Below, one piece after another: positions 38,177 through 61,789 of a stretch of DNA of 64,000 nucleotides (its first letter is position 1; each line of letters opens with the position of its first letter). Location of the stretch: the NCBI RefSeq assembly GCF_014647375.1, contig NZ_BMPB01000001.1:1-64000 (forward strand). Reading direction: 5' to 3'. Origin of the DNA: Parabacteroides faecis (lineage in GTDB: Bacteria > Bacteroidota > Bacteroidia > Bacteroidales > Tannerellaceae). The translations under genes and the position numbers were made by a program. Under the pieces are notes generated by a model. It worked only from the letters and a program-made list of their open reading frames with translations, made no database searches and had not been told where the DNA came from.

Positions 38177-41100
38177 TTACAGTGTTAAATTTAATCCAAT
38201 TGCAACTTTTCTGTTAATCGGGTATGTCAAACCACCCAGAGTCTCAGGGTCGAATGCATCATTCAGCGGAGTGATAGTCAGCAAGTTTTCTCCTGTTACA
38301 TATAACCTCAGACGAGAAATACCCCATTTGGCTGTCAGATTCTTCGGGATTGTATAACCTACCGTCAAATTCTTCAAACGTCCATAAGCTGCACTTTGCA
38401 AATAACGATCGCTTGTCACCCTGTTACCGCCATTTTGCCATCCCGGTCTTGGGAAATAAGCGTTCGTATTCGTCTCAGTCCAATAATCCAAAGCCGGAGT
38501 ATACGGAACATCCCACTGGCTGGTGAAACCCCAGAACTGAGCGCCACTCAGCATATAATCACGCTTTCCTGTTCCTTGCCAGAACATTTCAAAATCAAAA
38601 TTCTTATAATCAAACCCGACAGTAAGACCAAACTGATAACGAGGTGTTTTATTTCCTATAATACTCTTATCACCGGGATTATAGATTGTTTCCTCACCTT
38701 TTGTTATTTTACCATCACCATCCAAATCTTCGTATTTTACATCACCGGCACCCCATTTACCTGCATAAAGCTCACTTTGGTCTGCTGCAGCTGCTTCAGC
38801 ATCCGATTGGAAAAGACCATTTGAATGATACCCCCAGATTTCGCCGATCTTCTGTCCTACATAATACTTACCATCATCATCGCTCTGTGAATAGAAACCA
38901 GCATCATTTCCAGCATATTTGGTAATTGTTGCCTGATAGTCAGATAAAACACCTTTTACCCAATAAGAGAGTCCGTTTTCTAACCGGTCGTTCCAACCTA
39001 AAGAAAGTTCCCATCCAATCGTCTTCATATCAGCAGAATTGCTTTTAGGAACACTCGCTCCCAGCGTTGCGGGTAAAGTTGCTCCTGCTACCAACATATC
39101 TTTCGTATTACGACGGTACCAGTCAAATGATCCGGTCAAACGATTACTTAAAAATGAAGCATCAAAACCAAAGTCCATTTGAGTAACAGTCTCCCAGGTA
39201 AAATCAGAAGCAACAAGTCCCGGAGCTTTTACAATAACGGGTTTGGAACCGTTGATCAAATAATTATAAGATGAATTTGTTCCATAAGTTGCTAAATAAG
39301 GGAAATTGCCCAAATCACCCATAACCTGATTACCTAGTGAACCGTAAGATCCACGAATCTTCATGTCATTCCACCAACCTTTCAACGGTTGCCAGAAGTT
39401 TTCTTCTGAAATACGCCATGCAGCAGAAACAGATGGAAAGAAAGCATAACGATGATCTTTCGCAAACTTGGATGAACCGTCATAACGTCCGTTTACTTCA
39501 AGCAGATAACGTTGTTTATAGTTGTAGTTAAGACGGAAGAAGAAACCATTAATAGCCCAATAGGTATCTTCTGAAGACATACTCTGTTCGCCTGTAGCCA
39601 AATCCAAGTCAGGAATGTCTTCAACAATCAGGTTTGTGCGCTTAGCATTATATTTTTTGTTAGACTTTTTCTCCTGGTTATAACCAGCCATAATTTTGAA
39701 ATTATGCGTATTATCCAAGAATGATTTGGTATATTCTGCAAATGCGTTGAAAGCATAGTAATAATCTTCATTGGTCGTATAATTGGCATAACTCGGCTTT
39801 GTCCAACCATAAAGAGCTTCGGTTCCGGCAACTGCTGTATAATCAGTAAATGTCCGCTGAACCTCTGAAGAATTCTTGCTATATATATTATATGTATAAT
39901 CTGCATTAATAACCAACCCTTCTAACGGAGTAAGCTTCACGGCACCAGTTAACCATATATCGTTGACCTTATATTTCGTATAGCCTCCTAAATCTCCGAC
40001 AGCAGCAGGATTCGTGTTTCCATTCTGCCCGGAGTAGTTATTAACACCCTCATCTTCATAAACATAATCGCCTGAAGTCTGGATACCTAAACCGGAATCA
40101 TTAATAGCAGCCGCACCAGGACTGTAAACCAGTCTGCCGGTATGCCCGAAACGTACAGGCATCAACGGACTTAAGTCATTTTTCAACATACCACCATAAG
40201 CATCAATTCCTGCCGTAGAGTTAGTAATAGGGTGATCCTCCGTAGAATAGTTGTCTGTGATTTTAGCACTTACCTGCAGCCATTTTGTCAATTGCGAAGA
40301 AAGATTCAATGTGGCATTAAATTTCTTGTAACTATCATCAGCAGTTTTCAAAATACCATTCTGGTCTGCAAAACCAACTGAACCATAATACGTGGTTTTT
40401 GAATCTCCACCACTGATATTAACGTTGTATTGTTGTGAAAAGCTTGTTTTGTACAGCTCATTAAACCAGTCTGTGTTACCACAATAAAGCCATCTACTTT
40501 GATCTTGTGATTGATCGAAATATTCCGGATATTTGTAAGAGCCATTCATATAAGCCTTTACGTAATCCAACTGTCCCGGAGTGATCAAAGAACTCATTCC
40601 ACTATTTGCTGCTGCAATATCTCTCATTTCCAAATAATCCAGAGAGTTAATATTATGCATCCTTAATGCCGGACTTTGCCAATAACCGCTTGCAGATACG
40701 GAAATCTGAGGCTTTTGTTCACTCTTACCTTTCTTTGTCGTAATCAGGATAACGCCATAAGCAGCACGAGCGCCATAGATAGCGGCAGATGCAGCATCCT
40801 TTAAAACAGAAATAGAGGCAATATCATCCGGATTAACAAGGTTAGCATCCATTTGGACATTATCTACCAGCACCAGTGGGCTACCGCCATTAATAGAGTT
40901 ATTACCACGAATATTAAAATCAGAGCTACTTCCCGGAGCCCCTCCTTTACTCATCGTTACATTCAAGTTGGGTACAACCCCCTGCAGCCCTTGTCCCACA
41001 TTCGTAATAGGACGGTTTTCCAAAACATCGCCTGCAACCTGCGCTACAGCACCGGTCAAATTCTCTTTTTTCTGTGTGCCGTATCCTACGACCACCACTT

Positions 41101-41458
41101 CCTCCAAAGCTTGTGAGTCTTCCTTTAGTTTTACAGAGACTGAAGGTTGTCCTGTATACGTAATTTCCTGTGTTGCATATCCGATGTATGAAATCTGGAT
41201 AACATCTCCTTTCTTTACATCTTCCAGTACAACCTTACCATCCATGTCGGTCACATTTCCGTTGGTTGTTCCTTTAATAATAACTGAAGCTCCGACCACA
41301 GGGCCGAATGAATCCTCTACCACACATGTGACCTTCCCATTTTGTTGGGCCAGACTTACTGACGGTCTCTCCGGCGTTATATCCGCAGAAACTCCTACGG
41401 GAACAGTTAAAACTCCCGCCAGTAGCATTAGACTTACTAATTTAGTTTTTTTCAACAT
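38177..41458 (-). CDS. SusC/RagA-family TonB-dependent outer-membrane transporter 1
   Basis: About 1093 residues from the ATG at 41458 (MLKKTKLVSLMLLAG, a normal leader); an in-frame ATG at 41482 adds eight residues. Order: signal peptide, CarboxypepD_reg-like domain (about 42-110), TonB-box-like LEEVVVVGYGTQ, plug with the SusC signature IYGARAAYGVILITTKKGK, then the 22-strand barrel ending KVAIGLNLTL. There is no STN domain, so signalling through an anti-sigma factor is not expected; control is more likely by the inverted-repeat-bounded segment upstream (41585-41834). Confidence 0.95.
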   Translation of the reverse strand: MLKKTKLVSLMLLAGVLTVPVGVSADITPERPSVSLAQQNGKVTCVVEDSFGPVVGASVIIKGTTNGNVTDMDGKVVLEDVKKGDVIQISYIGYATQEITYTGQPSVSVKLKEDSQALEEVVVVGYGTQKKENLTGAVAQVAGDVLENRPITNVGQGLQGVVPNLNVTMSKGGAPGSSSDFNIRGNNSINGGSPLVLVDNVQMDANLVNPDDIASISVLKDAASAAIYGARAAYGVILITTKKGKSEQKPQISVSASGYWQSPALRMHNINSLDYLEMRDIAAANSGMSSLITPGQLDYVKAYMNGSYKYPEYFDQSQDQSRWLYCGNTDWFNELYKTSFSQQYNVNISGGDSKTTYYGSVGFADQNGILKTADDSYKKFNATLNLSSQLTKWLQVSAKITDNYSTEDHPITNSTAGIDAYGGMLKNDLSPLMPVRFGHTGRLVYSPGAAAINDSGLGIQTSGDYVYEDEGVNNYSGQNGNTNPAAVGDLGGYTKYKVNDIWLTGAVKLTPLEGLVINADYTYNIYSKNSSEVQRTFTDYTAVAGTEALYGWTKPSYANYTTNEDYYYAFNAFAEYTKSFLDNTHNFKIMAGYNQEKKSNKKYNAKRTNLIVEDIPDLDLATGEQSMSSEDTYWAINGFFFRLNYNYKQRYLLEVNGRYDGSSKFAKDHRYAFFPSVSAAWRISEENFWQPLKGWWNDMKIRGSYGSLGNQVMGDLGNFPYLATYGTNSSYNYLINGSKPVIVKAPGLVASDFTWETVTQMDFGFDASFLSNRLTGSFDWYRRNTKDMLVAGATLPATLGASVPKSNSADMKTIGWELSLGWNDRLENGLSYWVKGVLSDYQATITKYAGNDAGFYSQSDDDGKYYVGQKIGEIWGYHSNGLFQSDAEAAAADQSELYAGKWGAGDVKYEDLDGDGKITKGEETIYNPGDKSIIGNKTPRYQFGLTVGFDYKNFDFEMFWQGTGKRDYMLSGAQFWGFTSQWDVPYTPALDYWTETNTNAYFPRPGWQNGGNRVTSDRYLQSAAYGRLKNLTVGYTIPKNLTAKWGISRLRLYVTGENLLTITPLNDAFDPETLGGLTYPINRKVAIGLNLTL

Positions 41459-41584
41459 AAAGTTATAATTTAAAGAATACATCTTTTATAAAAAGGGCGT
41501 CAGTCCTGCGTATGATCACTTATATTCATTCTCATACTATGAAATTTGGCGTACTTTTTATTCTCATTTGCTTGTTGTTTTTTA

Positions 41585-41834
41585 TCTAGTTCTGAAAGAA
41601 CTCTGTCCCTACATCGACATATTTATATACAGGGTACCAGCTTCATTCCATTGAGCTTATAAATTGTAAGGTATGGTATCAATTTCTTGATTTATTTTTA
41701 GAGTATTCTGCACATACACCTATTCCATTTGTTAAAATTGGACCATGCCACCACATTTTTATATAATTAAATCATGTTTAAGTAAATATTTTAATATATT
41801 TGTCTCGACTAAACAGAGTTCTTTCAGAACTAGA
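41585..41834. promoter_or_regulatory. Candidate invertible promoter upstream of susC 1
   Basis: A perfect 22-bp inverted repeat at 41585-41606 and 41813-41834 encloses 206 bp. Each arm contains the partial palindrome AGTTCT-GAA-AGAACT. Inside, TATATTTG at 41795-41802 on the plus strand matches TAnnTTTG and points away from susC; no TAnnTTTG faces susC. Inversion would place this element at about 41617-41624 pointing to susC, about 160 bp from its start codon. The -33 element is poor. Phase-variable inversion is inferred. Confidence 0.7.
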
Positions 41835-48505: not shown

Positions 48506-48562
48506 TGTGCAAATGTTTTCGCACACACATTGTAGGATATTAAATATAATCTACTACTTTTG
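48506..48562 (+). promoter_or_regulatory. Promoter and candidate operator of the kdgK-eda-uxaC operon
   Basis: TACTTTTG at 48555-48562 is the -7 element; an ATTG 22 bp upstream is a weak -33. The inverted repeat TGTGC-n10-GCACA (48506-48525) lies just upstream, a form compatible with LacI- or CRP-type operators. Which regulator binds is unknown. The rest of 48301-48505 shows nothing. Confidence 0.5.
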
Positions 48563-48586
48563 CACTGGAATATAAAAGTTTATGCC

Positions 48587-49630
48587 ATGGATAAAAAAGT
48601 AATCACCTTTGGAGAGATAATGCTTAGACTGGCCACACCAGATTATCTCCGTTTCAATCAGACAAATCAACTGAATGCTACCTTCGGAGGTGGCGAAGCA
48701 AACGTTGCCGTATCGTTGGCAAATTATGGAATCGACACTGAGTTCGTTACTCGTTTGCCGAAAAATGATATTGCACGTGCCTGCGTAATGGATTTACGTA
48801 AATATGGTGTCGGAACCTCTCACATCGTTTACGGAGGCGACCGTCTGGGTATCTATTTCCTGGAAACAGGAGCCGTAGCCCGCGCCAGTAAAGTTGTTTA
48901 CGACCGTGCTCATTCTTCTATCGCTGAAATAGAACCGGGAATGATCAACTGGGAAGAAGTACTGAAAGATGCTTCCTGGTTCCACTGGACCGGTATCACT
49001 CCGGCTATCTCACAAGGTGCTGCCGATGCCTGTCTGGAAGCGATTCAGGCTGCCAATAAACTGGGCGTACCTGTATCCTGCGACCTGAACTACCGCAAAA
49101 ATCTCTGGAAATACGGAAAGAAGGCTTCTGAAGTAATGCCCGAACTGGTTGCCGGTTGCGATGTGATCCTGGGCAACGAGGAAGATGCGGAAAAGGTATT
49201 CGGTATCAAGCCGGAAGGTTTCGATGTGGCACAGACTGAAGGCCAGGTGAATGCAGCCGAATTTGAATCGGTATGTACACAACTGATGGCTAAATTCCCA
49301 CGCGCAAAGAAAGTGATCATCACCTTGCGCGGTTCTATCAACGCCAACCACAATACATGGGGAGGCGTTTTATATGCGGATGGTAAACTGTATCAGTCTC
49401 GCCGTTACGATATTACCCACATCGTCGACCGTGTCGGTGGCGGTGACTCTTTCATGGGCGGCCTGATCTACGGTCTGCTTACTTATACGACTGACGACCA
49501 GAAAGCACTCGACTTTGCTGTTGCCGCTTCCTGCCTGAAACATACCATCTACGGCGACTTCAACCAGGTTACCGTCGACGAAGTGGAAAAACTGATGGAA
49601 GGCGACGGGTCAGGACGCGTTTCAAGATAG
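48587..49630 (+). CDS. kdgK: 2-dehydro-3-deoxygluconokinase (KDG kinase)
   Basis: 347 residues from the ATG at 48587 (MDKKVITFGEIMLRL). An upstream in-frame TTG at 48560 lies within the promoter and is rejected. PfkB/ribokinase fold with FGGGEANVAVSLANYG near the N-terminus and the ATP/catalytic signature DRVGGGDSFMGGLIYG with the catalytic Asp. It phosphorylates 2-keto-3-deoxygluconate to KDPG in uronate catabolism, the role supported by eda and uxaC downstream. The gap to eda holds a short TTGACAGTTGACAG repeat. Confidence 0.93.
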   Translation: MDKKVITFGEIMLRLATPDYLRFNQTNQLNATFGGGEANVAVSLANYGIDTEFVTRLPKNDIARACVMDLRKYGVGTSHIVYGGDRLGIYFLETGAVARASKVVYDRAHSSIAEIEPGMINWEEVLKDASWFHWTGITPAISQGAADACLEAIQAANKLGVPVSCDLNYRKNLWKYGKKASEVMPELVAGCDVILGNEEDAEKVFGIKPEGFDVAQTEGQVNAAEFESVCTQLMAKFPRAKKVIITLRGSINANHNTWGGVLYADGKLYQSRRYDITHIVDRVGGGDSFMGGLIYGLLTYTTDDQKALDFAVAASCLKHTIYGDFNQVTVDEVEKLMEGDGSGRVSR

Positions 49631-49637
49631 TTGAAAA

Positions 49638-49651
49638 TTGACAGTTGACAG
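49638..49651. repeat. Partial copy of the TTGACAGTTGACA repeat
   Basis: TTGACAGTTGACAG lies between kdgK and eda, a single arm of the hairpin repeats at 16981-17096 and 46291-46381. Confidence 0.55.
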
Positions 49652-49677
49652 TAATATAATTAAGAATATACATAATT

Positions 49678-50346
49678 ATGGCCAGATTTAATAAATTACA
49701 GGTATTGAATGCGATGATCAGCACCGGCATGGTACCTGTTTACTACAATAGTGATATAGAAACAGCGAAACAAGTAGTGAAAGCTTGTTACGATGGCGGT
49801 GTCCGTGCATTCGAATTTACAAACCGTGGTGATTTTGCGCACGAAGTATTTGCCGAACTGGTAAAATATGCAGCAAAAGAATGTCCGGAAATGATCCTGG
49901 GTATCGGTTCAATCGTCGATCCGGCTACTGCCGCATTGTTCCTGCAACTGGGAGCAAACTTCGTGGTAGGTCCGTTGTTCAATCCGGAAATTGCAAAAGT
50001 ATGTAACCGCCGTCTGGTTCCTTATACTCCAGGATGCGGTTCTGTTTCCGAGATCGGTTTTGCCCAGGAAGTAGGATGCGACCTGTGCAAGGTTTTCCCT
50101 GCCGGAAACGTAGGCGGTCCTTCCTTCGTAAAAAATATGAAAGCGCCGATGCCCTGGTCGCTGATCATGGCAACCGGAGCTGTAGAACCGACAGAAGAGA
50201 ACCTGTCAGGCTGGTTCAAAGCCGGCGTTACCTGTGTAGGTATGGGTTCCAAACTATTCCCGAAAGAAGCGATCGCAGCGAAAGACTGGAAAGCAATCAC
50301 AGACCTTTGTGTCAATGCATTAGAGATCATCAAAAAATACCGTTAA
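49678..50346 (+). CDS. eda: KDPG/KHG aldolase
   Basis: 222 residues, class I aldolase TIM barrel. The catalytic Glu region is RAFEFTNRG, the phosphate-binding region ends [10 protein letters not shown], and the Schiff-base Lys is in [14 protein letters not shown]. It splits KDPG into pyruvate and glyceraldehyde 3-phosphate. It follows kdgK by 47 bp and precedes uxaC by 3 bp, completing the uronate/Entner-Doudoroff lower branch. Confidence 0.95.
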
Positions 50347-50349
50347 GTT

Positions 50350-51753
50350 ATGAAACCATTTCTTGATTCAGATTTCCTGCTACAGACGGAGACAGCACAA
50401 AAGCTGTACCACGAGCATGCAGAGAAAATGCCGATCATCGACTATCACTGTCATTTGATCCCGCAACAAATAGCCGACAATTATCAATTTGCCGACCTGA
50501 CAGAGATTTGGCTGGGCGGAGACCATTACAAATGGCGTGCCATGCGTGCAAACGGTGTTCCCGAAGAATATATTACCGGCAATAAACCGGCTTTTGAGAA
50601 ATTCCAGAAATGGGCAGACACGCTGCAACATGCGATGCGTAACCCGCTTTACCACTGGACTCATCTGGAACTGAGCCGCATATTCGGTGTCGACAAGGTG
50701 TTGAATCCTTCCACGGCACGCGAAATATACGACGAATGTACCGCCAAACTGCAAACCCCGGAATTCCGTGCACAAGCCATCATGGAGCGCATGAATGTAG
50801 AGGTAGTCTGTACGACCGACGATCCGGTCGATTCGCTGGAATATCACAAAGCCATCCGCAACACCTCGTTGAAGACCAAAGTTCTTCCTACCTGGCGTCC
50901 GGATAAAGCGATGGCGATCGACAATACGGTTGCCTACAACGAATATCTTGGTAAACTGGAAGCGGCATCCGACACGACAATCCTTTCTTTCAAGGATCTG
51001 CTGGGTGCTTTGCAGAAACGTCACGATTATTTTGCTGCCGAAGGCTGTCGCGTGTCCGACCACGGTCTGACCACGTTCTATGCCGCACCGTATACGAATG
51101 CCGAAATCGAAGCGATCTTCATGAAAGCACGTATGAACAAAGCTTTAACGGCTGAAGAAGTGGATAAATTCCGTTCTGCCATCCTGTATGAGCTGGCTGT
51201 TATGGATGCAAAAACCGACTGGGTACAGCAGTTCCACATCGGTCCGACGCGCAACAACAATGCCCGTATGTTCAAACTGTTAGGTCCTGATACCGGATAC
51301 GATGCGATCGACGATGCACCGGTTGCGGTTCCGATGATCCATTTCCTGAGCCGCCTGGAAGAAGAAGGAATGTTGGCGAAGTCGATCTTCTACAACCTGA
51401 ATCCGAAAGACAGCGCTGTCATGATGACTACAGCTTACAGCTTCAATGACGGCTCACAACCGGGCAAGATGCAGTATGGTGCAGGCTGGTGGTTCCTCGA
51501 TCAGATACACGGTATGGAAGCTCAGATGAATACACTTTCCGACCTAGGCTTATTGAGCCGCTTTGTCGGCATGTTGACCGATTCACGCAGTTTCCTGTCT
51601 TATCCGCGTCACGAATATTTCCGCCGTATCCTTTGCAATATGCTGGGTAAGGAGGTAGAAAACGGCGAATTGCCTGTTTCTGAAATTCCTTTCATCGGCA
51701 AGATGGTAGAAGATATCAGCTATCAGAATGCGAAAGAGTATTTCGGATTCTAA
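50350..51753 (+). CDS. uxaC: Glucuronate isomerase (uronate isomerase)
   Basis: 467 residues, normal length. The amidohydrolase-like metal motif is at the start (IIDYHCHLIPQQIADN), with CTTDDPVDS, the conserved RNNNARMFKLLGPDTGYD, and LTDSRSFLSYPRHEYFRR near the end. It interconverts glucuronate/fructuronate and galacturonate/tagaturonate. Only three bases separate it from eda, so translation is coupled. UxuA/UxuB or UxaA/B are not in this window. Confidence 0.96.
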   Translation: MKPFLDSDFLLQTETAQKLYHEHAEKMPIIDYHCHLIPQQIADNYQFADLTEIWLGGDHYKWRAMRANGVPEEYITGNKPAFEKFQKWADTLQHAMRNPLYHWTHLELSRIFGVDKVLNPSTAREIYDECTAKLQTPEFRAQAIMERMNVEVVCTTDDPVDSLEYHKAIRNTSLKTKVLPTWRPDKAMAIDNTVAYNEYLGKLEAASDTTILSFKDLLGALQKRHDYFAAEGCRVSDHGLTTFYAAPYTNAEIEAIFMKARMNKALTAEEVDKFRSAILYELAVMDAKTDWVQQFHIGPTRNNNARMFKLLGPDTGYDAIDDAPVAVPMIHFLSRLEEEGMLAKSIFYNLNPKDSAVMMTTAYSFNDGSQPGKMQYGAGWWFLDQIHGMEAQMNTLSDLGLLSRFVGMLTDSRSFLSYPRHEYFRRILCNMLGKEVENGELPVSEIPFIGKMVEDISYQNAKEYFGF

Positions 51754-51828: not shown

Positions 51829-52956
51829 TCACTTGCCATAAATATACACTTCTGCAATGTTAGTAAAAGGTTCACGGTTACTATCTGGCAAGAGAATTTT
51901 AAGATAACGGCCCTGGCTTGTATCTATGGATCCGGGAATGGGTAATTCCAAACTATCACCATCACCGAACACTCCGGTTACCAACTGAACCCAATCTGTA
52001 GCATTGGCATCCGGACTATTTCCTACATAAATTTCAACACTTTTCGTATCGGTGGTACCGGAACGGCGATAAACTTCTATTTTCGACATTTCTTTCGGTG
52101 ATTCCATATCTATAACAGCCCAATGCGGCAGAGGCGTATCACCATCCGTATAATTGGAGTGCCACCAGGTATCCAGTTTTCCGTCAATGATCGCGTCCTT
52201 TCCACCACCGTCGCTGGCTGTTTCATCGGAAACAGTTACCGTCCAGCCGCTACGGTCGAACTTGTATTCGGCAGGAAAAGCCTCGTCATACTTACTCCAT
52301 GCCGTATAGAAAGTATCGATCGACTCTTCTTCCGGAATGAATAAAGAACGAAACTCAAACTCTTCACCCGCCTTGGCATCCGGACAGAATGTTGTATATT
52401 CTTCCGACGGCATCCGGATAATACTTTCCGTACCATCATTTTTTATGTATCTGACCTCATTGGCCAATAAGCCTTCCGCAGCGGAATACCATTCCACCGA
52501 CGCCCCCTTGTCCGTAAGCGAGATATTTTTTATACGACGGTCCATTAGCGTTGCCAGATAATTCTTACCATAGGAAGTTCCGAAGTCCGTTACAGACAAA
52601 GAACGATGGTCGAAATTATCCACCAGTTGTACTGTGAATGTATATGACTTCTCTTCCATGTTATCCAATACGACCTCGATGCTGTCATAACTTGAATTAA
52701 AGGATACCGGAATAAGCAACGAATCCAATCCGTCGTTCCAATACAGATTCACCGATTTCACGTTCGGAGAATTATATGCCCTGCAAAAAAACAGAATACG
52801 CTCTTTTCCCGCAATAAACGCTATTGAATCCGGTTTAGGAGCATAAATGATCTCTCCGCCTTCAATATATTCTTTATGCACATCCATAAAATCTTCACAG
52901 GAAGTAATCAGGAGAGTGCATGCAATAAATACTAATAAACTATATATTCTTTTCAT
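51829..52956 (-). CDS. DUF4998 lipoprotein with discoidin (F5/8 type C) domain
   Basis: 375 residues; lipobox Cys20 (LLITSC). The N-terminal half (about 25-210) resembles DUF4998. The C-terminal half (about 225-375) is a discoidin-type domain: DAIIDGKLDTWWHSNY, PHWAVIDMESPKEMSKIEVY, GRYLKILLPDS. Such domains bind sugars at the cell surface. It is the last gene of the second SusC/SusD operon and is probably a surface glycan-binding protein. Confidence 0.87.
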   Translation of the reverse strand: MKRIYSLLVFIACTLLITSCEDFMDVHKEYIEGGEIIYAPKPDSIAFIAGKERILFFCRAYNSPNVKSVNLYWNDGLDSLLIPVSFNSSYDSIEVVLDNMEEKSYTFTVQLVDNFDHRSLSVTDFGTSYGKNYLATLMDRRIKNISLTDKGASVEWYSAAEGLLANEVRYIKNDGTESIIRMPSEEYTTFCPDAKAGEEFEFRSLFIPEEESIDTFYTAWSKYDEAFPAEYKFDRSGWTVTVSDETASDGGGKDAIIDGKLDTWWHSNYTDGDTPLPHWAVIDMESPKEMSKIEVYRRSGTTDTKSVEIYVGNSPDANATDWVQLVTGVFGDGDSLELPIPGSIDTSQGRYLKILLPDSNREPFTNIAEVYIYGK

Positions 52957-52983
52957 GGTTTATATATTCCTTTTTAATTTATA

Positions 52984-54171
52984 CTATTCAACCACTTCCC
53001 CATATATATCTACATCAGCGGGGTGACAGAAGGAAGAACCACCCCAAGTATTCAATATACTAATGCGGATATAACGTATCGGTTCCTGTGATAACTCAAA
53101 AGCAAACTCATGCCCTTCTTCAGCAGCTGTAACATCTTCATCCGTTACTGTTCCACTCGGAGATCCGGAAGGTTTGACAATCAGGCAATCCATCACTTTT
53201 TCCCATTCACTCCAGTCACCGCTCTGAGAAGGTGTTCCTGTTCCTTTGAACACATACACCTCGAAATCCAACGGATTTCCCCAGTTATAATACGAATCGG
53301 AATATTTACGCTGGAACATCACGACACGGCTGGGTTTCGCTATACATCCCAGATCGATGGTAAATGCGGCAGGCATGGAATTGGATGCCGAATGGCCGAA
53401 AGTATCATGGTCGTCGTCGATCAGATAGCTGTCCATCCCCTCCCAGTTCGTAAAGCTGGCATCAGATCCCAACTTCATAACGACCATTTTCTTTTTATTC
53501 AGTTTTTCTTCGAAAAGCGGTGTTATCTGACCTTCCGAAGGGAAAATAGTATCGGAAGCGTTGTCAAAGTTATCCCGCATGATCATCCCGAAATAACGAG
53601 GCTCGGCTTTATAGCCGCGCAAGCTATAACGGTTCGAATCAGCTTCCGAAGTCATAATACGCATAGTCTGCATTTGCCCCAGGGAATCCTGTGCAAGAAA
53701 CTCCATCGTCAAGGGAGCTTTGTCTTCATTCCGCCAGTTATATTGGGCACCGCCAAAATCCTGTACGATCGATATTGTCTTGATGGCTTTGCTCAAAGAA
53801 GACTCCAACGGAGTAAAAGTCACTTCCACAGGATCCGACAATTCCTGAGCACGATTGATCACATAAATATTCGCCTTATTCGGGATGGTATCGTTATACC
53901 CTTCTATTTTGATCTTATTCTCATAAAAAGAAGCGACTCTTTCCGTCTCTTTTCCATTCGTAAGCGTATAAACGGCTTTTACAGCCAGGATATCCTCCGA
54001 ATTGGGAATGCGGTAAGAAACGACGGCACCACCGGCTATCGGTTCCACATTTACATCGGTCACCACTCCGGGTTTTCCCAGACTTCCGGTTATAGGTTCC
54101 AGTGTCTTTTCCGAACAAGAGCAAAGCAATAGAACCGAAGTCAGCATACTGAAATAATATTTCGTTTTCAT
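52984..54171 (-). CDS. DUF4959/DUF5000-type lipoprotein
   Basis: 395 residues; lipobox ending at Cys19 (LLLCSC). N-terminal DUF4959-like region (PGVVTDVNVEPIAGGAVVSY), a middle DUF5126-like part, and a C-terminal DUF5000/discoidin-like region (HDTFGHSASNSMPAAFTIDL, then IRYIRISILNTWGG). These proteins are regularly encoded next to SusD and are thought to bind glycans at the surface. 21 bp from SusD upstream, 27 bp to the DUF4998 gene downstream. Confidence 0.88.
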   Translation of the reverse strand: MKTKYYFSMLTSVLLLCSCSEKTLEPITGSLGKPGVVTDVNVEPIAGGAVVSYRIPNSEDILAVKAVYTLTNGKETERVASFYENKIKIEGYNDTIPNKANIYVINRAQELSDPVEVTFTPLESSLSKAIKTISIVQDFGGAQYNWRNEDKAPLTMEFLAQDSLGQMQTMRIMTSEADSNRYSLRGYKAEPRYFGMIMRDNFDNASDTIFPSEGQITPLFEEKLNKKKMVVMKLGSDASFTNWEGMDSYLIDDDHDTFGHSASNSMPAAFTIDLGCIAKPSRVVMFQRKYSDSYYNWGNPLDFEVYVFKGTGTPSQSGDWSEWEKVMDCLIVKPSGSPSGTVTDEDVTAAEEGHEFAFELSQEPIRYIRISILNTWGGSSFCHPADVDIYGEVVE

Positions 54172-54192
54172 AATTCTGTATTACATTATTAA

Positions 54193-56109
54193 TTACCACC
54201 CCGGATTCTGTACCAATTGCGGATTATTCACAATATCAGATTCTGGTATCGGGGCAAAATAGTTTTTATAAGTAAATGACTGCGTATAGACCGTAGTCAA
54301 AGTATAATAATCCACAACCTCTTTGGCATTGACATTCCAACCCTGTATCAGACGGTTCTGCTCTTTCTGGGCTGTTTTCCAGCGGCGGCTGTCCCAATAA
54401 TAAACACCTTCACAAGCCAGTTCGATCTTACGTTCACGCTGGATGATTTCACGCATCCCTGCTTTGGTCGACGGTTTACTAGCCTGGTTCGAATATTTCT
54501 GCCAGCTTTCTACCACCCCTTTCAAACCGGCACGTTCGCGTACCATATCTATATACTTATAAACTTCCGCATCGGGAGCATCTTTCGACTCATTCAAAGC
54601 TTCGGCGCATAGTAAGAGAAGGTCGGCAAAACGCATATCCGGGAAAGCAAAGTTTTCCCAGCTGATATCATTGGCATTACGGAAACTGGAGTTGATCGAA
54701 ACCAGCTTCTTCGGCCAATAACCTGTCGCATTATAATTACCCGGATTGGCTACCGATGAAAATTCACCGAACCGGTTTTTGGGATACAGACATTCTGCAT
54801 CGTCATCCGGCACATTTTTATATGAGTTTCCATACCATTTACCACGGTCAAAACCTAATGTCGAATAAAAACGAGGTTCACGGTCAAAGTTCATAGCCGC
54901 AGTCTGCTCACCCTTCTGGATATAATATTTATGATCCTCGTCTCCGGTCCGTACATTGAAACGGTTCGAATAATCATAATTTTTATCTTCTTCGATAGGT
55001 ACACCGTTCTTGGAATAGAACTGTTCGACCGTTGCCATCGAAACACTCATACGTGTCCCATAACTCAGAGAGGTTGCCTGTTCCAGATAACAAATACACT
55101 GTCCCTGCAGACCGTCATTCAGTGGATAAGAAGAATTTCCCCATACCAGCTCACAATTCCAGCGATCACTTACAGAACCACGCAGAGTCTGCACCAACCG
55201 GGTTTCATCCGAAAGAGTTTTAGTAGCCACATAATCGGAAGTCTGGTATAGACGGATACCGGCACTTTCACAAATATTGACTGCTTCTTTACAAGCCTCC
55301 GCTGCTTTTTGCCAACGTGTCTCATCATACGTCTGATTAAAGAACGGTTCTCCGTTATGATTACGGAAACTGTTGTAATCCGTATTCCCGTTATACAACG
55401 GACTGGCCCAATAGGTCAAAACTTTTGCTTTCAGCATATAAGCTGCCGGACGAGCAAAACGGCCTAATTCACTTGTCTGGTTTTCAATCACCAGAGGAAG
55501 CGGATCGCCTTCTATTACCTCATCCAGTAATTCCAGGATATAGGAAAAGCAATCATCGACTTTTTCACGATATACCCTGACACCTTGCGTCGATTCGTTC
55601 ACCGGTATATTTTCACGCAACGGACAGATCGGTCCGTAATAGGTCAGCAGGTAGAAGTGCATATAGGCTTTGATCAGTTTCACTTCTGCAATCATACGCC
55701 TGATCTCGTACTGGTTCAGATCTTTTACACCGACAATACCTTCCATAAAGGTATTACACTCACGAATACCTGCATACAAAGAACGGATCATGTCGCCTGT
55801 GCCGCCCCAATAATTGATCAAAGCACTGGTCGGACTATCGGTACCCAATCCGAATTTCATACCATTCTCTGTACTTCCTTCTTTATTGAAGATCATTTCC
55901 AGCGATCCGAATATTCCCGGATTTTCATTCCATCCGGCCGACTTAGGCATTCCCCAATAACAGGTAGCCAGATATTGTTCAGCTGTATACCGGTCTGAGA
56001 AAGCATTATCCAATGTCGGAACATTGTCCGGGACAACATCCAGATAGTTACAGGAGGCTATTGAAAAAGCAGTGCATATATATATTAAATATTGATATAT
56101 CGATTTCAT
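54193..56109 (-). CDS. SusD/RagB-family nutrient-binding lipoprotein 2
   Basis: 638 residues; lipobox Cys20 (SIASC) followed by NYLDVVPDNVPTLDNAF. SusD-type helical scaffold; C-terminal block IQRERKIELACEGVYYWDSR and the closing YFAPIPESDIVNNPQLVQNP. It pairs with the SusC gene 18 bp upstream. The ligand is unknown; a uronic-acid-containing glycan is a guess from the neighbouring uxaC operon. Confidence 0.94.
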   Translation of the reverse strand: MKSIYQYLIYICTAFSIASCNYLDVVPDNVPTLDNAFSDRYTAEQYLATCYWGMPKSAGWNENPGIFGSLEMIFNKEGSTENGMKFGLGTDSPTSALINYWGGTGDMIRSLYAGIRECNTFMEGIVGVKDLNQYEIRRMIAEVKLIKAYMHFYLLTYYGPICPLRENIPVNESTQGVRVYREKVDDCFSYILELLDEVIEGDPLPLVIENQTSELGRFARPAAYMLKAKVLTYWASPLYNGNTDYNSFRNHNGEPFFNQTYDETRWQKAAEACKEAVNICESAGIRLYQTSDYVATKTLSDETRLVQTLRGSVSDRWNCELVWGNSSYPLNDGLQGQCICYLEQATSLSYGTRMSVSMATVEQFYSKNGVPIEEDKNYDYSNRFNVRTGDEDHKYYIQKGEQTAAMNFDREPRFYSTLGFDRGKWYGNSYKNVPDDDAECLYPKNRFGEFSSVANPGNYNATGYWPKKLVSINSSFRNANDISWENFAFPDMRFADLLLLCAEALNESKDAPDAEVYKYIDMVRERAGLKGVVESWQKYSNQASKPSTKAGMREIIQRERKIELACEGVYYWDSRRWKTAQKEQNRLIQGWNVNAKEVVDYYTLTTVYTQSFTYKNYFAPIPESDIVNNPQLVQNPGW

Positions 56110-56127
56110 ATTTTCCGTTTTATTAAA

Positions 56128-59100
56128 TTAGAATCCTAAATTAAGTCCCACATTGATCACACGCTGAACAGGATAACCTAATCCGTTACCCGCCATTTCA
56201 GGATCCCATAGTTTGAATTTGCTCCAGCAAAGCAAGTTGGTTCCGCTCACATAAAAACGTAAGTTCTGAACCTTGAACTTCTTCACCAAATCTCTTGGCA
56301 CGGTATAGCCGATTTCAACCGATTTCAACCGGAGGAAAGTAGCATCCTGCATAAACCAGGTACTTGTCTGATTGTTATTTTCAACTGTTTGATTAGCCAG
56401 ACGGGGCCAGAAAGCATAAGGGTTCCTGTTGTTTTCAGACCAATAGCTATTGGCTATCACGTCCAGTACAGCATTTTGTCCCAACAAATTATCCTGATCG
56501 TTATCTCCCGCATCTCCATCCAAGAACGGAGTAATCTTTTTAAGATCCAGCCAGAAAGACTGACGTCCCGATCCCTGGAAAAAGAAAGAAGCATCTACAC
56601 CTTTATAACCTACTGACAGACCGAAACCATAGTTGATCTCCGGCGTCGTCGGATAACCGATAGGCACTTTATCCAATTCCGAGATTTTGCCGTCACCGTT
56701 TACATCACGATATTTGATATCACCGGCCATATATTCACCGAATTGGGTGGGAGAATTCCTTACCTCCTCTTCATCCACAAACAGACGTTCTGCTATATAT
56801 CCCCAGGTTTGGGTCAACGATTTTCCTACTTTCGACAACCAGGGAGTCTCGCTGTAATCCGGCTCTTCCCATTCTACCGCTTCGCTCGTTGCGTAGGTTA
56901 ATGTTCCGCGCCCTGTGATCCATAAATCTTTATTGAAACTCTTCTCATAGTTCAGTTCCATATCCACACCTTTTCCTTTTGCCTTTCCCAAATTAGCCTT
57001 TACATCAGGAATGATACCCATTGTATTCGGAATGATACGGTTCAGCAAAATATTTTCCCGTCGTTCCGTAAAATATTCAATATTAGCCGAAAGTCCGAAT
57101 ACCGTACGCATCTCCGCTCCCACATTCAGCTTATAGGATTTTTCCCATCCGATTTCATCATTGGCATAGCGGTCTACAATAATTCCTCCCGGATTATAAT
57201 TCAATTGAGTACCCCAATTCACATTCCGTTTGTCGCTATTCAAAGTCACTTGCGACAGATAATAGAACCGGTCATTGCCATCCCCAATCTGATCCTGCCC
57301 TGTCAATCCATAAGATGCCTTGAATTTAAACTGATCGAACACATTTTTCAAAGGTTCGAAAAAGCTTTCTTTCGAGAGCATCCAGCCGCCGGCTACAGAA
57401 GGGAAGAACCCCCAACGGTTATTTTTGGAGAAACGTTCCGAACCATTGTATCCAAAAACAAATTCACCGAAATAACGTCCGTCATAATTATAGGCTGCAC
57501 GTCCGGCCAAACCGATATTACGACCTGGTAAAGATAATTGGAGGTTATCGGCTATACCGGTCTTTTTACTTTGCATCGTATAAACCAGCAAGCCATTTAC
57601 TCCATGTTTGTCAAAATTACGGGTGTATTCCGCTGCTCCTTCCAAGTAGAAGTTCGTATTTACATATCTGTTTCCCGGGTTATAATTAATCCACTCCGTA
57701 CCGGTACTCGGATTCAAACGATTCAATTTATACGAACTATCCAGCAGGTTATAAGATGATATGTTATAGAAGAAAGGATCATAAGCACGGTTTACCGAAT
57801 ATTCGGAATAGCGGTCTATATTAATCTTTGCACGGATAGCAAGCCCTTCGGTCAACATATCCAACTTCTGCTTACCCTCGAACTGAACCAGCATCGTATT
57901 CTTACTGTAATCATTATATCCCTTCAAAGCCTGTGCATACGGGTTTACATAATTACCGGCACCATAGTTACCGAATAAGATATGCTTGGAATATGCGTAC
58001 TGTTCATCCGGTTCATAATAAGGTTTGAACAATACGGGATTGGCCATCATCACTTCCTTGTACATGAAAGAACCGCCGCCGATAGGTCCTGTATATTCAT
58101 CGAACGTTCCGCTCATACGCAATACCAACTCCGTCGTTTTTGTCAGGTTGATATTGATATTCGAACGGATCGAATATTTCATCAGGCTGATATTGGAATT
58201 AAAATTATTTCTTTTATCGACTTTCATGTTACCATTGTCTTTCGACACATTGGCAGCCACATAATAACGGGCAACCGTTCCACCACCGCTAAGGCTCAGA
58301 TTGGCACGCTGGTTGGAGATCACATCGTTGAACATGGTATCATACCAGTCCGTTGTCGGGAAGATATCGGGATATAATCCACGTTCGGTCATCGTTATTT
58401 TTTCTTCAGAATATAAAGCCAATCCCAGTGGGTCACGGGTTTTAATCGCTTCATTCTGCATCCGCATATAAGTAACAGGATTGGTCAGGCCGATTTTTTT
58501 GGTCGGAGATGAGAATGAGTTTTCCACACGGGCGTTAATGGTTACTTTTCCTTCTCTACCTTCTTTCGTTGTAACGGAGATTACGCCATTCGCTCCGCGT
58601 GCACCGTATAATGCCGTAGCTGTAGCATCTTTCATGATCGAAAAGCTGGCAATATCATCTGTATTCAAACGGGCCAGGTCATCCGTACTCAATTCAATAC
58701 CGTCGATCAGGATAAGCGGATCTTTCTTTGCCTCAGCACCAAAAGTCGTAATACCACGGATAAAGAAACTGGCGTTATCCTGTCCCGGCTCACCACTTGT
58801 CTGATAGGAGATCAATCCGGCAACACGACCGGCAAAAGCCGTTGTCAGGTTACTGCTCGGGATTTTTAACTCCGTCGGTTTCACTGTCGTAATGGCGGAT
58901 ACCACACTTTCTTTTTTCTGTTTGGCAAAAGCAACGACCGTTACTTCTTCCAGCTCGTCCGCCTTCGATTCCAGTACGACATTCAGGATTTTCTGCCCGG
59001 TATACTTAATTTCCTTGGTTTCCATACCGATATACGAAACAACCAGGGTGCTGTTAAGAGGACAATCATCAAATTCAAAGTTACCATCCATATCGGCAAT

Positions 59101-59382
59101 AACTCCTTTCGTACTGCCTTTTATCTGTACTGTCGCACCAGGTAAAGGCTCTCCCCCCGCATCAGAGATTTTCCCTTTGAACTTTGACGTTTGTTGAACA
59201 TTTGATGCCACAGGGGAGATTTCGGCTTTTAGTTCCCCGGATGGTACCCACGCAATTGTTAATAAAAATACCGGTAATATCCATCCATATGAATATATTC
59301 CCGGCTTTGTGCACTGAATTTTCTGAAACAGATGGCATTTATCGCCATGCATCTTTCGCAATCTAATCATCACACTTACCAA
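56128..59382 (-). CDS. SusC/RagA-family TonB-dependent outer-membrane transporter 2
   Basis: 1084 residues from the first ATG; starts at 59370 or 59352 are also possible because the leader is unusually long before its hydrophobic core. CarboxypepD_reg-like domain (about 67-130), TonB-box-like LEEVTVVAFAKQKK, plug with ATALYGARGANGVISVTTKE, and the barrel ending RVINVGLNLGF. There is no STN domain. First gene of a four-gene operon; upstream is the second inverted-repeat-bounded promoter segment (59447-59675). Confidence 0.94.
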   Translation of the reverse strand: MVSVMIRLRKMHGDKCHLFQKIQCTKPGIYSYGWILPVFLLTIAWVPSGELKAEISPVASNVQQTSKFKGKISDAGGEPLPGATVQIKGSTKGVIADMDGNFEFDDCPLNSTLVVSYIGMETKEIKYTGQKILNVVLESKADELEEVTVVAFAKQKKESVVSAITTVKPTELKIPSSNLTTAFAGRVAGLISYQTSGEPGQDNASFFIRGITTFGAEAKKDPLILIDGIELSTDDLARLNTDDIASFSIMKDATATALYGARGANGVISVTTKEGREGKVTINARVENSFSSPTKKIGLTNPVTYMRMQNEAIKTRDPLGLALYSEEKITMTERGLYPDIFPTTDWYDTMFNDVISNQRANLSLSGGGTVARYYVAANVSKDNGNMKVDKRNNFNSNISLMKYSIRSNININLTKTTELVLRMSGTFDEYTGPIGGGSFMYKEVMMANPVLFKPYYEPDEQYAYSKHILFGNYGAGNYVNPYAQALKGYNDYSKNTMLVQFEGKQKLDMLTEGLAIRAKINIDRYSEYSVNRAYDPFFYNISSYNLLDSSYKLNRLNPSTGTEWINYNPGNRYVNTNFYLEGAAEYTRNFDKHGVNGLLVYTMQSKKTGIADNLQLSLPGRNIGLAGRAAYNYDGRYFGEFVFGYNGSERFSKNNRWGFFPSVAGGWMLSKESFFEPLKNVFDQFKFKASYGLTGQDQIGDGNDRFYYLSQVTLNSDKRNVNWGTQLNYNPGGIIVDRYANDEIGWEKSYKLNVGAEMRTVFGLSANIEYFTERRENILLNRIIPNTMGIIPDVKANLGKAKGKGVDMELNYEKSFNKDLWITGRGTLTYATSEAVEWEEPDYSETPWLSKVGKSLTQTWGYIAERLFVDEEEVRNSPTQFGEYMAGDIKYRDVNGDGKISELDKVPIGYPTTPEINYGFGLSVGYKGVDASFFFQGSGRQSFWLDLKKITPFLDGDAGDNDQDNLLGQNAVLDVIANSYWSENNRNPYAFWPRLANQTVENNNQTSTWFMQDATFLRLKSVEIGYTVPRDLVKKFKVQNLRFYVSGTNLLCWSKFKLWDPEMAGNGLGYPVQRVINVGLNLGF

Positions 59383-59446
59383 TTTAAGGTTAATAAATAA
59401 ATATAGGTCTAAGAATTGTATAATGAATAAATCATTTAATCACCGC

Positions 59447-59675
59447 AGTTCTATGAGAACTATGGCATACAAATAACTGGCTATATATTAGATCAATAAG
59501 TAAAATCAAGGAGTATGTGGAAATATACAAACCCTGTTTATAAGAATGATGACGATAATTTATGGTTAACAAATGTTATATTATTAGCTTACGTTTTGCT
59601 CTAACATTATTTTTTATATAATTTTGTTTTCATAATGTGATAGATTATTTAATATGAAATAGTTCTCATAGAACT
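59447..59675. promoter_or_regulatory. Candidate invertible promoter upstream of susC 2
   Basis: A perfect 17-bp inverted repeat at 59447-59463 and 59659-59675 encloses 195 bp; each arm contains AGTTCT-ATG-AGAACT. Inside, on the plus strand, TTTG (59595-59598), a 20-bp spacer and TAATTTTG (59619-59626) form a full consensus promoter pointing away from susC. Nothing matching TAnnTTTG faces susC. Inversion would turn it toward susC. Confidence 0.75.
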
Positions 59676-59740
59676 AATATTCAGAAAAACGTCCTCTCCT
59701 CCCTTTAAAAATCCATTTCCATAAGAACGATATAAAAACA

Positions 59741-59780
59741 AAAAGAGACTATCTCATTTTTGTTGAGACAGTCTCTTTTT
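59741..59780. terminator. Bidirectional terminator between the invertible segment and the S9 peptidase gene
   Basis: Arms based on AAAAGAGACT and AGTCTCTTTT around a short loop, with A-run before and T-run after. In the present orientation it would stop transcripts from the outward-pointing promoter at 59595-59626. Confidence 0.8.
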
Positions 59781-59824
59781 ACTTAATTCTATTTTATACT
59801 ATCATACAGTAACTTATAGTGCTA

Positions 59825-61789
59825 TTATTTCCCGCTCTCTATTTCATCCAGGAAGCGGAAACATTCATAATAAAATTTCCGGTTATTATCGACACCTTTT
59901 ATACCATGTCCCAACCCTTCGAATTCCACATAGCGGTGAGGGAGGTTCAGATGTGTCAGTTTACGGTCCAGCAAACGCGAACCTTCGATATCCACACGGT
60001 TATCATGATTTCCATGTAACAACAGTAAAGGACCGGTCAGTTTCTCTGCATGATACAAAGGAGAACGGTCAATCAACCGGGCTGCATCCTTCACCGGATC
60101 ACCTGCCTCAAGAGCTGTCCAGTCAGGGATATTGGAATGCATATGTTGGTAAATAATATCACAGAAACCGGCTGTCTCAATTCCAAAACCGAATTTAAAA
60201 GAGGCTTTATTTCCATTTACTTCGCCGGGGAATGTGACCAGACGCATCGTGGCATACCCTCCGTGGCTCATTCCAAAGACTCCGATACGTTCCGCGGGAA
60301 CATCCAGTTTTTTCGAGATATAATCCGCACAATAAATAATATCGATGATCTCGTTTCCACCCAGATCTTTATCATTCATAGCTGCAAAATCACGGCCGAA
60401 ACCTGCACTACCGCGTGGAGAAGGGCTAAGAACCGTAATACCTGCTGCATTGAAAATTTCATATTCCGTATTATATCTGTTCTCACCACCGTAGAAAGAT
60501 TCGATCATAATCAATTCCTTCCCTTTTGGAAGAGGATTCTTCGGCTTATAAAGATAAGCATGCAACATACGTGTTTTTCCGGTAGCCGGATCCACATCGA
60601 AAGTCGGGATAGAAAGACGTTCCACATCCGAGTGAACCAGTTTATCTTTCAGTGCCTCGGGTAAATCGAATACAACAGAGAGCTTCATGCTTTTTTTACC
60701 GACCTCCGCCTTCACAATCTGGAATACTACTGAAGTAGAATTTGCCAGCAGACTTACCTGATCGCCCTGAACCGCACCGATAGACAAAGACAGATCGGAG
60801 GATTGTTTGTATAACATCTTGCCGGTTTTGATATCCATCAACATCAATGATGTTTCTATCGGGTTACTTTGCAAGACGAACAAATATTTCTCATTCTTGA
60901 TCGTTACAAAACGGGCATCTTCTATATCAGATGTAAAATGAGTCACCTGGCTCGCTTTCATCGTCCGGCGGTCAAAACGATACAGGTTCTTATATCCATC
61001 CTGATCGGAGAAGAAGAAACATTCATCACCGGATATCCATTTATCCATTACAGAGGTTCCTGCATAACTACCCGGTTTGGAAGGGTCGGTCAGAACTGTT
61101 GTCTGTTTGGTTTCCGTATCGATATAAATAATATTTGCATAGGTACGGTCGGCATCTTTCAAAGCCAGCAGCATCAAACCTTTTCCGTCCGGTTGCCAGC
61201 TTACATCGCCCCAGGTATAACGAAAATCCGGTTTATCCTGGCAAACCAATTCATCTGCACCGGTCTTCAGGTCGAGAATACGCAATTCATCCAGTCTTTT
61301 TTCATTCTGGGCAAGTCTCGCCACATAAGCGATCTTTGTTTTATCCGGGTTAAAATCCCAGGCATAAATATAAGGTACACTTGTCAGTTTTTCCGGTTTA
61401 GGGGAAAGAAGATTGCTCCGGTAGATATTGATGATCTCCTCGTTGTTCTCATCCCCGATCCAATAGACATTCCCGTCTTTCTCATTATAGACAGGTTGCC
61501 AGCAATTACGTTTAGAGAAGTCGAGATCGACAACATCGGTTGCCTTCGACAAGTCGTTTTCCTTTGTTATATCCAACCACTGCAACTTATTCTGGTTGGA
61601 GGTTTTAAAAAAGAATAACTTCTGCCCGTCATCACTCAATGAAAACTGAGAATAAGGGAAGTCTTCAAAGAAAGGAGCAATGTCCACATTCCTCCCCTGG
61701 AATTTCAATACCAGGTCGGAGGCCTTCTGTTGAGCTGACGAGGCCATACAGGCCATCGTCAGCATCAAAGCTACTATTAGTTTATTCAT
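59825..61789 (-). CDS. S9-family (prolyl oligopeptidase-type) serine peptidase
   Basis: 654 residues with a signal peptide (ends near ASSAQQ). N-terminal beta-propeller (about 45-370; DFNPDKTKIAYVAR, SWQPDGKGLMLLA), then an alpha/beta-hydrolase domain with the nucleophile in GMSHGGYATMR, the Asp in HGNHDNRVDIEG and the His in GLGHGIKGV. The family cleaves peptides, often dipeptidyl or acyl-peptide substrates. It lies 18 bp behind a SusD gene, so this SusC/SusD system may import peptides. Periplasmic location is likely. Confidence 0.92.
   Translation of the reverse strand: MNKLIVALMLTMACMASSAQQKASDLVLKFQGRNVDIAPFFEDFPYSQFSLSDDGQKLFFFKTSNQNKLQWLDITKENDLSKATDVVDLDFSKRNCWQPVYNEKDGNVYWIGDENNEEIINIYRSNLLSPKPEKLTSVPYIYAWDFNPDKTKIAYVARLAQNEKRLDELRILDLKTGADELVCQDKPDFRYTWGDVSWQPDGKGLMLLALKDADRTYANIIYIDTETKQTTVLTDPSKPGSYAGTSVMDKWISGDECFFFSDQDGYKNLYRFDRRTMKASQVTHFTSDIEDARFVTIKNEKYLFVLQSNPIETSLMLMDIKTGKMLYKQSSDLSLSIGAVQGDQVSLLANSTSVVFQIVKAEVGKKSMKLSVVFDLPEALKDKLVHSDVERLSIPTFDVDPATGKTRMLHAYLYKPKNPLPKGKELIMIESFYGGENRYNTEYEIFNAAGITVLSPSPRGSAGFGRDFAAMNDKDLGGNEIIDIIYCADYISKKLDVPAERIGVFGMSHGGYATMRLVTFPGEVNGNKASFKFGFGIETAGFCDIIYQHMHSNIPDWTALEAGDPVKDAARLIDRSPLYHAEKLTGPLLLLHGNHDNRVDIEGSRLLDRKLTHLNLPHRYVEFEGLGHGIKGVDNNRKFYYECFRFLDEIESGK

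What the first reader, a model, noticed from the sequence alone, without database searches (positions are those of the whole stretch)
59447..59675. Second invertible-promoter candidate upstream of susC 2, with a full consensus promoter pointing outward
A perfect 17-bp inverted repeat encloses 195 bp holding TTTG-N20-TAATTTTG on the plus strand, directed away from susC and toward a strong terminator at 59741-59780. The arrangement is what an OFF-state phase switch should look like.
Basis: partly seen in the sequence, partly recalled or inferred. Interest (0 to 1): 0.8.

Follow-up and report, generated by a model that had tools for sequence, protein, structure and literature searches.

The report
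Flippable promoter before nutrient-uptake genes
A short stretch of DNA carrying a promoter sits between two mirror-image recombination sites and can probably be flipped to switch a set of outer-membrane nutrient-uptake genes on or off; it is one of about 34 such look-alike candidates in this bacterium's genome, and of a kind already known from related bacteria.

Summary
Window 59447-59675 is bounded by a perfect 17-bp inverted repeat (23 nt at 91%), encloses 195 bp, and carries TTTG-N20-TAATTTTG pointing away from susC toward a hairpin terminator. Each arm holds the site AGTTC-N5-GAACT. It occurs 66 times in the 6.66-Mb genome against 1 for the reversed pattern, in 34 candidate inverted pairs (22 exact), 18 before susC genes and 8 before ECF sigma genes. 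A promoter-like element lies 25-60 nt inside one end in 20 of these 26: 14 point away from the gene (OFF), 5 toward it (ON), 1 has both. One sigma-gene switch lies inverted, relative to its sigma-side flank, against three related species, a sign that the class inverts. The window locus has no such direct proof. The best candidate enzyme of four profiled is a tyrosine recombinase (G000:C3:454683-455870), found in 16 of 18 genomes with paired sites and 26 of 130 without. This is a new member of a known kind: the Bacteroides-type invertible susC promoter.

The parts
59447..59675 (.). invertible segment including both arms (229 bp)
59447..59469 (+). left arm (23 nt, 91% to the right arm; first 17 perfect), holding the site AGTTCTATGAGAACT at 59447-59461
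59653..59675 (-). right arm, holding the site AGTTCTCATAGAACT at 59661-59675, whose core is complementary to that of the left arm
59595..59626 (+). Bacteroides-type promoter TTTG-N20-TAATTTTG, pointing away from susC (OFF)
   Evidence: after an in-silico flip its -7 element would end at 59496 on the - strand, about 119 nt of leader from the assumed start site to the ATG at 59370
59383..59446 (-). gap between the left arm and the susC ORF; no TAnnTTTG element toward susC
59737..59783 (.). hairpin terminator beyond the segment; would stop OFF-state transcription and read-through from the peptidase operon
   Evidence: listed for the - strand; the + strand reading and the role are inferred
56128..59382 (-). 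susC-type TonB-dependent receptor, the switched gene (probable ATG at 59370, inferred)
54193..56109 (-). susD-type lipoprotein, same presumed operon
52984..54171 (-). DUF4959/DUF5126/DUF5000 protein, same presumed operon
51829..52956 (-). DUF4998 + F5/8 type C protein, end of the presumed operon
59825..61789 (-). S9 peptidase beside a susD gene, beyond the terminator; not part of the switch
41588..41831 (.). sister switch of the same class (AGTTCTGAAAGAACT / AGTTCTTTCAGAACT), before susC at 38177-41482; TAnnTTTG at 41795-41802 on +, also OFF

Best explanation
A phase-variation switch. A tyrosine recombinase acting in trans binds the two AGTTC-N5-GAACT sites and exchanges strands across the identical 5-nt cores, flipping the 229-bp segment. 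In the assembled state the promoter fires away from susC into a terminator, so the susC-susD-DUF-DUF operon (51829-59382) is OFF. After the flip the same promoter faces susC with a leader of roughly 120 nt, and the operon is ON. Shown here: the arms, the site class, the promoter direction, and opposite orientations of one sigma-gene switch of this class between species. Inferred: inversion at this locus, the effect on expression, and the recombinase and its strand-exchange chemistry.
For: Perfect 17-bp repeat. 66 sites in the genome against 1 for the reversed pattern. Of 25 exact-site pairs within 2.5 kb, 23 are inverted with complementary cores; the other 2 are a direct repeat inside a triple and two unrelated sites 2.5 kb apart. 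26 of 34 candidate pairs sit upstream of a susC-type (18) or ECF sigma gene (8). 22 TAnnTTTG elements lie 25-60 nt inside an end, in 20 of the 26 loci, against a mean of 1.5 and a maximum of 6 over all 26 in 200 shuffles. States are mixed: 5 ON, 14 OFF, 1 both, 6 none. At the sigma-gene switch L046 the sigma-side flank aligns at 81-82% to within 3 nt of the arm, while the inside aligns in reverse with G019, G024 and G022 (71.6-75.2 bits against 31.9-32.8). The element 33 nt from the edge faces away from sigma in G000 and toward it in all three. No TAnnTTTG faces susC in the gap 59383-59446.
Against: No reads or second strain show this segment flipped. Its -7 element is 49 nt from the edge, not the usual 29-36, and a full consensus arises in 1.6% of shuffles. 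In 18 named loci with SusC homologues (59-75% identity, best segment) no AGTTC pair lies in up to 900 bp before the match (9 of the 18 have less than 900 bp there, some almost none; 4 of the 18 have other inverted repeats of 12 nt or more there). The homologous segment end in G024 has the same orientation. Of 15 cross-species switch comparisons with matching flanks, 3 were inverted, all of the one locus L046, 6 had the same orientation (3 of them among L046's three relatives) and 6 had no match inside. In L046 the other flank next to the arm does not match: the nearest match is about 2.7 kb away. L046 and L115 each carry a second, oppositely facing TAnnTTTG (59 and 48 nt).
Confidence: 0.9

Rival explanations
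1. The two palindromic sites are operators for a dimeric regulator, and the DNA between them does not invert.
For: Each arm contains a dyad (AGTTCT-ATG-AGAACT), the usual shape of an operator.
Against: Operators need no complementary, locus-specific cores, but 23 of 25 exact pairs within 2.5 kb are inverted with complementary cores. The repeat extends beyond the dyad to 23 nt. The L046 segment is found in opposite orientations between species.
Confidence: 0.04
2. A switch of this class that is now frozen: the site pair and promoter are relics, because the invertase is lost or silent or the promoter lies too far from the edge.
For: The promoter sits 49 nt from the edge. None of the recombinase genes found lies next to the switch. 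All 26 states are read from one assembly.
Against: Both arms match the whole 15-nt site. The genome has an uninterrupted recombinase ORF of the candidate family; by eye the R, K, HxxR, H and Y positions are kept in the alignment (motif recalled). Switch states are mixed within the genome.
Confidence: 0.05
3. The segment inverts, but the susC-driving promoter is another sequence in it or in the gap, so the OFF call is wrong. (This overlaps with the best explanation as to inversion; the odds do not add to 1.)
For: The segment is 24% G+C and sigma-70-like matches around it are at chance level (4 found, shuffle mean 4.2). The chosen promoter is not at the usual distance.
Against: It is the only full consensus match. 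The 77 bp from its -7 region through the right arm are 82% identical in the G024 switch. No TAnnTTTG faces susC inside the segment or in the gap.
Confidence: 0.08

Closest known systems
Tsr0667-controlled invertible regions of Bacteroides fragilis (Nakayama-Imaohji 2009; not held, known from passages in PMC4747536 and PMC11852207)
   Same: One trans-acting tyrosine recombinase; inversions at susC/susD clusters and other regions (passages). The consensus as I recall it, about AGTTYYYN4GAACT, resembles the site here; no call checked this.
   Different: Reported for 3 susC/susD clusters plus 9 other regions; here there are 34 candidate loci in one genome, 8 before ECF sigma genes. Orthology of the candidate recombinase to Tsr0667 was not tested.
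Mpi/FinA-type invertible capsule promoters of B. fragilis
   Same: Invertible promoters switching surface-structure operons, served by one global invertase (passages).
   Different: Serine recombinase and mainly capsule targets; the arm sequence is different as I recall it, not checked.
Invertible promoters of gut Bacteroidales found with PhaseFinder (PMC8748976, PMC10939037; passages read)
   Same: Inverted repeats around a TTTG / TANNTTTG promoter; invertible regions near susC/susD.
   Different: Those were called from reads in both orientations, which are not available here. In PMC8748976 all identified resistance-gene cases lie just downstream of an invertase gene; none of the recombinase genes found here is next to the switch.
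Inversion sites reported in Parabacteroides distasonis (PMC5903667, PMC10773633; passages read)
   Same: Numerous inversion sites in a relative.
   Different: The passages give no site sequence, target list or enzyme to compare.

Membership tests
Bacteroidales invertible promoter (phase switch) | promoter of the TTTG / TAnnTTTG type between inverted repeats, upstream of a surface-protein operon | tested here: met
Bacteroidales invertible promoter (phase switch) | both orientations of this segment exist in a population | not testable with these tools
   no reads; opposite orientations seen only for the sister switch L046, between species
Bacteroidales invertible promoter (phase switch) | expression follows orientation | not testable with these tools
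   no transcript data
Tsr0667-type switch | repeats contain the class consensus | tested here: inconclusive
   AGTTC-N5-GAACT present in both arms; the published consensus is recalled only, paper not held
Tsr0667-type switch | inversion by one trans-acting tyrosine recombinase | tested here: inconclusive
   candidate L089 at E <= 1e-60: in 16 of 18 genomes with paired sites and 26 of 130 without (Fisher p 1.5e-8; within the family 2.2e-5; relatedness not corrected); L095 and L098 did worse
Tsr0667-type switch | candidate recombinase orthologous to Tsr0667 | not tested
   no Tsr0667 sequence was fetched
Mpi-type switch | serine recombinase and its arm consensus | not tested
   serine recombinases were not searched for

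The most novel reading that the evidence does not exclude
One tyrosine recombinase serves a genome-wide set of about 34 switches. The outer 5+5 nt of each site are constant, and the 5-nt core acts as a mostly private address (20 distinct cores among 22 exact-pair loci) that changes in both arms together between related switches (GATTA/GATAA and TGTAA/TATAA; TATGA/TATGT). This would keep recombination within a locus. Placing 8 of the switches before ECF sigma genes would turn single flips into regulon-wide changes.
Probability: 0.4. Interest if true: 0.6.

Novelty: new member of a known kind. Interest (0 to 1): 0.42.

Why it matters
Phase-variable susC/susD receptors can decide which nutrients, phages and immune responses a bacterium meets (general knowledge). 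The window locus alone is one more case. The genome-wide set gives a countable candidate switch regulon with one named candidate recombinase, testable with a single gene deletion, and it includes sigma factors as switched genes. The site class is rich in some relatives (31-81 sites in G019, G022, G024, G065, G071 and G075, controls 2-6) and at control level in many others of the 148 genomes, so its gain and loss can be followed.

Tried and rejected
Recombinase in the window (15550-16455) as invertase: it scores as XerD, set aside. The 267-aa recombinase at C1:365538-366335: close relatives (90% and 75%) in only G065 and G075 of the 27 other genomes searched, so not the general enzyme. L095 and L098 as invertase: in 15 and 14 of the 18 paired-site genomes but also in 57 and 38 of the 130 others, and without a match at E <= 1e-60 in G071 and G075, two of the genomes richest in sites. 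Only these three and L089, of the 22 recombinase genes found over the family cut-off, were profiled across genomes, so the enzyme is not settled. L089 is present without paired sites in 26 genomes, and G004 and G060 have pairs without it.

G147 was dropped from the paired-site genomes (19 to 18) because its repeat is direct, not inverted. One listed pair in G075 (C271) has non-complementary cores. The pair pattern spans only 140-200 bp between sites and undercounts: it finds 7 of the 34 in G000; not all of its matches were listed.

Of the 66 sites in G000, 9 have no credible partner (counted by hand). A partner 2.4 kb from the L048 site, with two mismatches and inside an ORF, was dropped. Of the 34 pairs, 22 are exact, 11 have one arm mismatch and 1 (L068) has two; the 12 inexact ones were selected for complementary cores, so only the exact ones test complementarity. 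Eight pairs lack an adjacent susC or sigma target and were left out of the ON/OFF count.

Literature: searches in several cases listed only part of their hits. No listed title or passage that I read gave this site consensus or an invertible promoter before an ECF sigma gene; one search held 82 papers of which 20 were listed and none was opened. Nakayama-Imaohji 2009, Jiang 2019 and Kuwahara 2004 were looked up and are not held; Cerdeno-Tarraga 2005 was not looked up. For the papers cited, passages only were seen.

Full report
Observation. The perfect repeat is 17 nt with 195 bp between, extending to 23 nt at 91%. A repeat this long arose in 1 of 2000 shuffles and a full promoter consensus in 80 of 5000. 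The presumed operon is susC (56128-59382), susD and two DUF proteins, one with an F5/8 type C domain. Beyond the hairpin lie an S9 peptidase and a susD gene, then a 210-aa ORF without a Pfam match.

Site class. Each arm contains AGTTC-N5-GAACT. The window has four exact matches, the two pairs before its two susC genes. The genome (6,663,845 bases, 33 contigs, unnamed) has 66 against 1 for the reversed pattern. The organism is possibly Parabacteroides or a near relative; this is weak, resting on the nearest named SusC matches (75% and 71% in Parabacteroides records, but also 71% in a Maribellus record), while the best match outside G000 among the 39 genus genomes searched is 57%. I fetched the surroundings of all 66 sites. 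They form 34 candidate inverted pairs: 22 exact, 11 with one arm mismatch, 1 with two (counted by hand). Of the 25 exact-exact pairs within 2.5 kb, 23 are inverted with complementary cores. The inexact pairs were picked for complementary cores and do not test it.

Targets and promoter. 26 of the 34 pairs lie 0-315 nt upstream of a susC-size ORF (18; one SusC-type alignment; four also matched Pfam plug domains) or an ECF sigma gene (8 of 8 with sigma regions 2 and 4, region 2 of L056 below Pfam's cut-off). The 5 next genes tested beside sigma genes are all FecR-like. A TAnnTTTG element lies 25-60 nt inside one end in 20 of 26: 14 OFF, 5 ON, 1 both, 6 none. 18 of the 20 have one at 29-36 nt. Shuffles gave a mean of 1.5 such elements over all 26, at most 6, against 22 observed. 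The window locus is OFF with the element at 49 nt, as in L059; its sister at 41588-41831 is OFF at 29 nt.

Direct sign of inversion. Of 15 cross-species comparisons with matching flanks, the three of L046 with G019, G024 and G022 show the inside inverted relative to the sigma-side flank; these three relatives agree among themselves, so this may be a single event. The element 33 nt from the edge faces sigma in the three and away in G000. The far flank of L046 matches only from about 2.7 kb beyond the arm. L119/L120, L121/L122 and L127/L128 had the same orientation. Six comparisons, among them L057 with L119 and L120 (flanks about 80%), had no match inside.

Cores. In L121/L122 and L127/L128 the cores differ between species but remain complementary within each switch. 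The homologous end in G024 (82% over 77 bp) lies before a SusC-like ORF 36% identical over 287 aa, with core TATGT where the window has TATGA, so the segment may have moved between loci. Cores are not wholly private: two are shared between exact-pair loci in G000, and more are shared when the inexact pairs are counted.

Recombinase. G000 has 22 tyrosine-recombinase genes over the family cut-off; by the listed coordinates none is beside an AGTTC switch, the nearest being about 9 kb away. L089 (397 aa; Arm-DNA-bind_5, Phage_int_SAM_5, Phage_integrase) tracks best of four profiled: 16 of 18 genomes with pairs, 26 of 130 without. Relatedness was not corrected; within the family p is 2.2e-5. In G001, G016, G017, G026 and G061 it is present at 75-78% identity without excess sites, which speaks against a simple one-to-one link. 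XerD, at 15550-16455 in the window, is not a candidate.

Verdict. A well-supported OFF-state invertible susC promoter, a new member of a known kind. The larger interest is the genome-wide set, its sigma-gene targets and the candidate enzyme.

Noticed in passing
L066:4740-5310 (G000:C10:57039-57609): The invertible pair lies between two divergent FecR-like genes with susC-size ORFs beyond. Modelled inversion changes the FecR-like ORFs from 222 and 314 aa to 314 and 215 aa, so the promoter-proximal head would pass from one anti-sigma gene to the other.
   Followed up: partly
L075:4221-5887 (G000:C12:219620-221286): A 1667-bp segment holding a FecR-like gene; modelled inversion extends the neighbouring SusC-size ORF from 1011 to 1119 aa, as if the assembled state lacked the gene's start.
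   Followed up: partly
L053 (G000:C3:210107) and L137:2936-3414 (G033:C35): A switch between two divergent ORFs, so that either orientation could drive one of the two: in L137 both match window SusC proteins; in L053 they are 1120 and 1141 aa, only the second tested and SusC-like.
   Followed up: no
G071 and G075: Two other genera of the family have 61 sites in 1.6 Mb and 81 in 3.3 Mb, against 6 and 2 for the control.
   Followed up: partly
L135:2345-2390 (G024:C11): One arm of the G024 switch is embedded in a strong hairpin followed by T's (AAGGCCATAG...CTATGGCCTTTTTT), which looks like a terminator built on the recombination site (by eye).
   Followed up: no
window 48560-51753: PfkB-type kinase, KDPG/KHG aldolase and glucuronate isomerase genes in a row, convergent with the switched operon.
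   Followed up: no
G001, G016, G017, G026, G061: L089 relatives at 75-78% identity without excess AGTTC sites; the recognised site may have shifted in that group.
   Followed up: no
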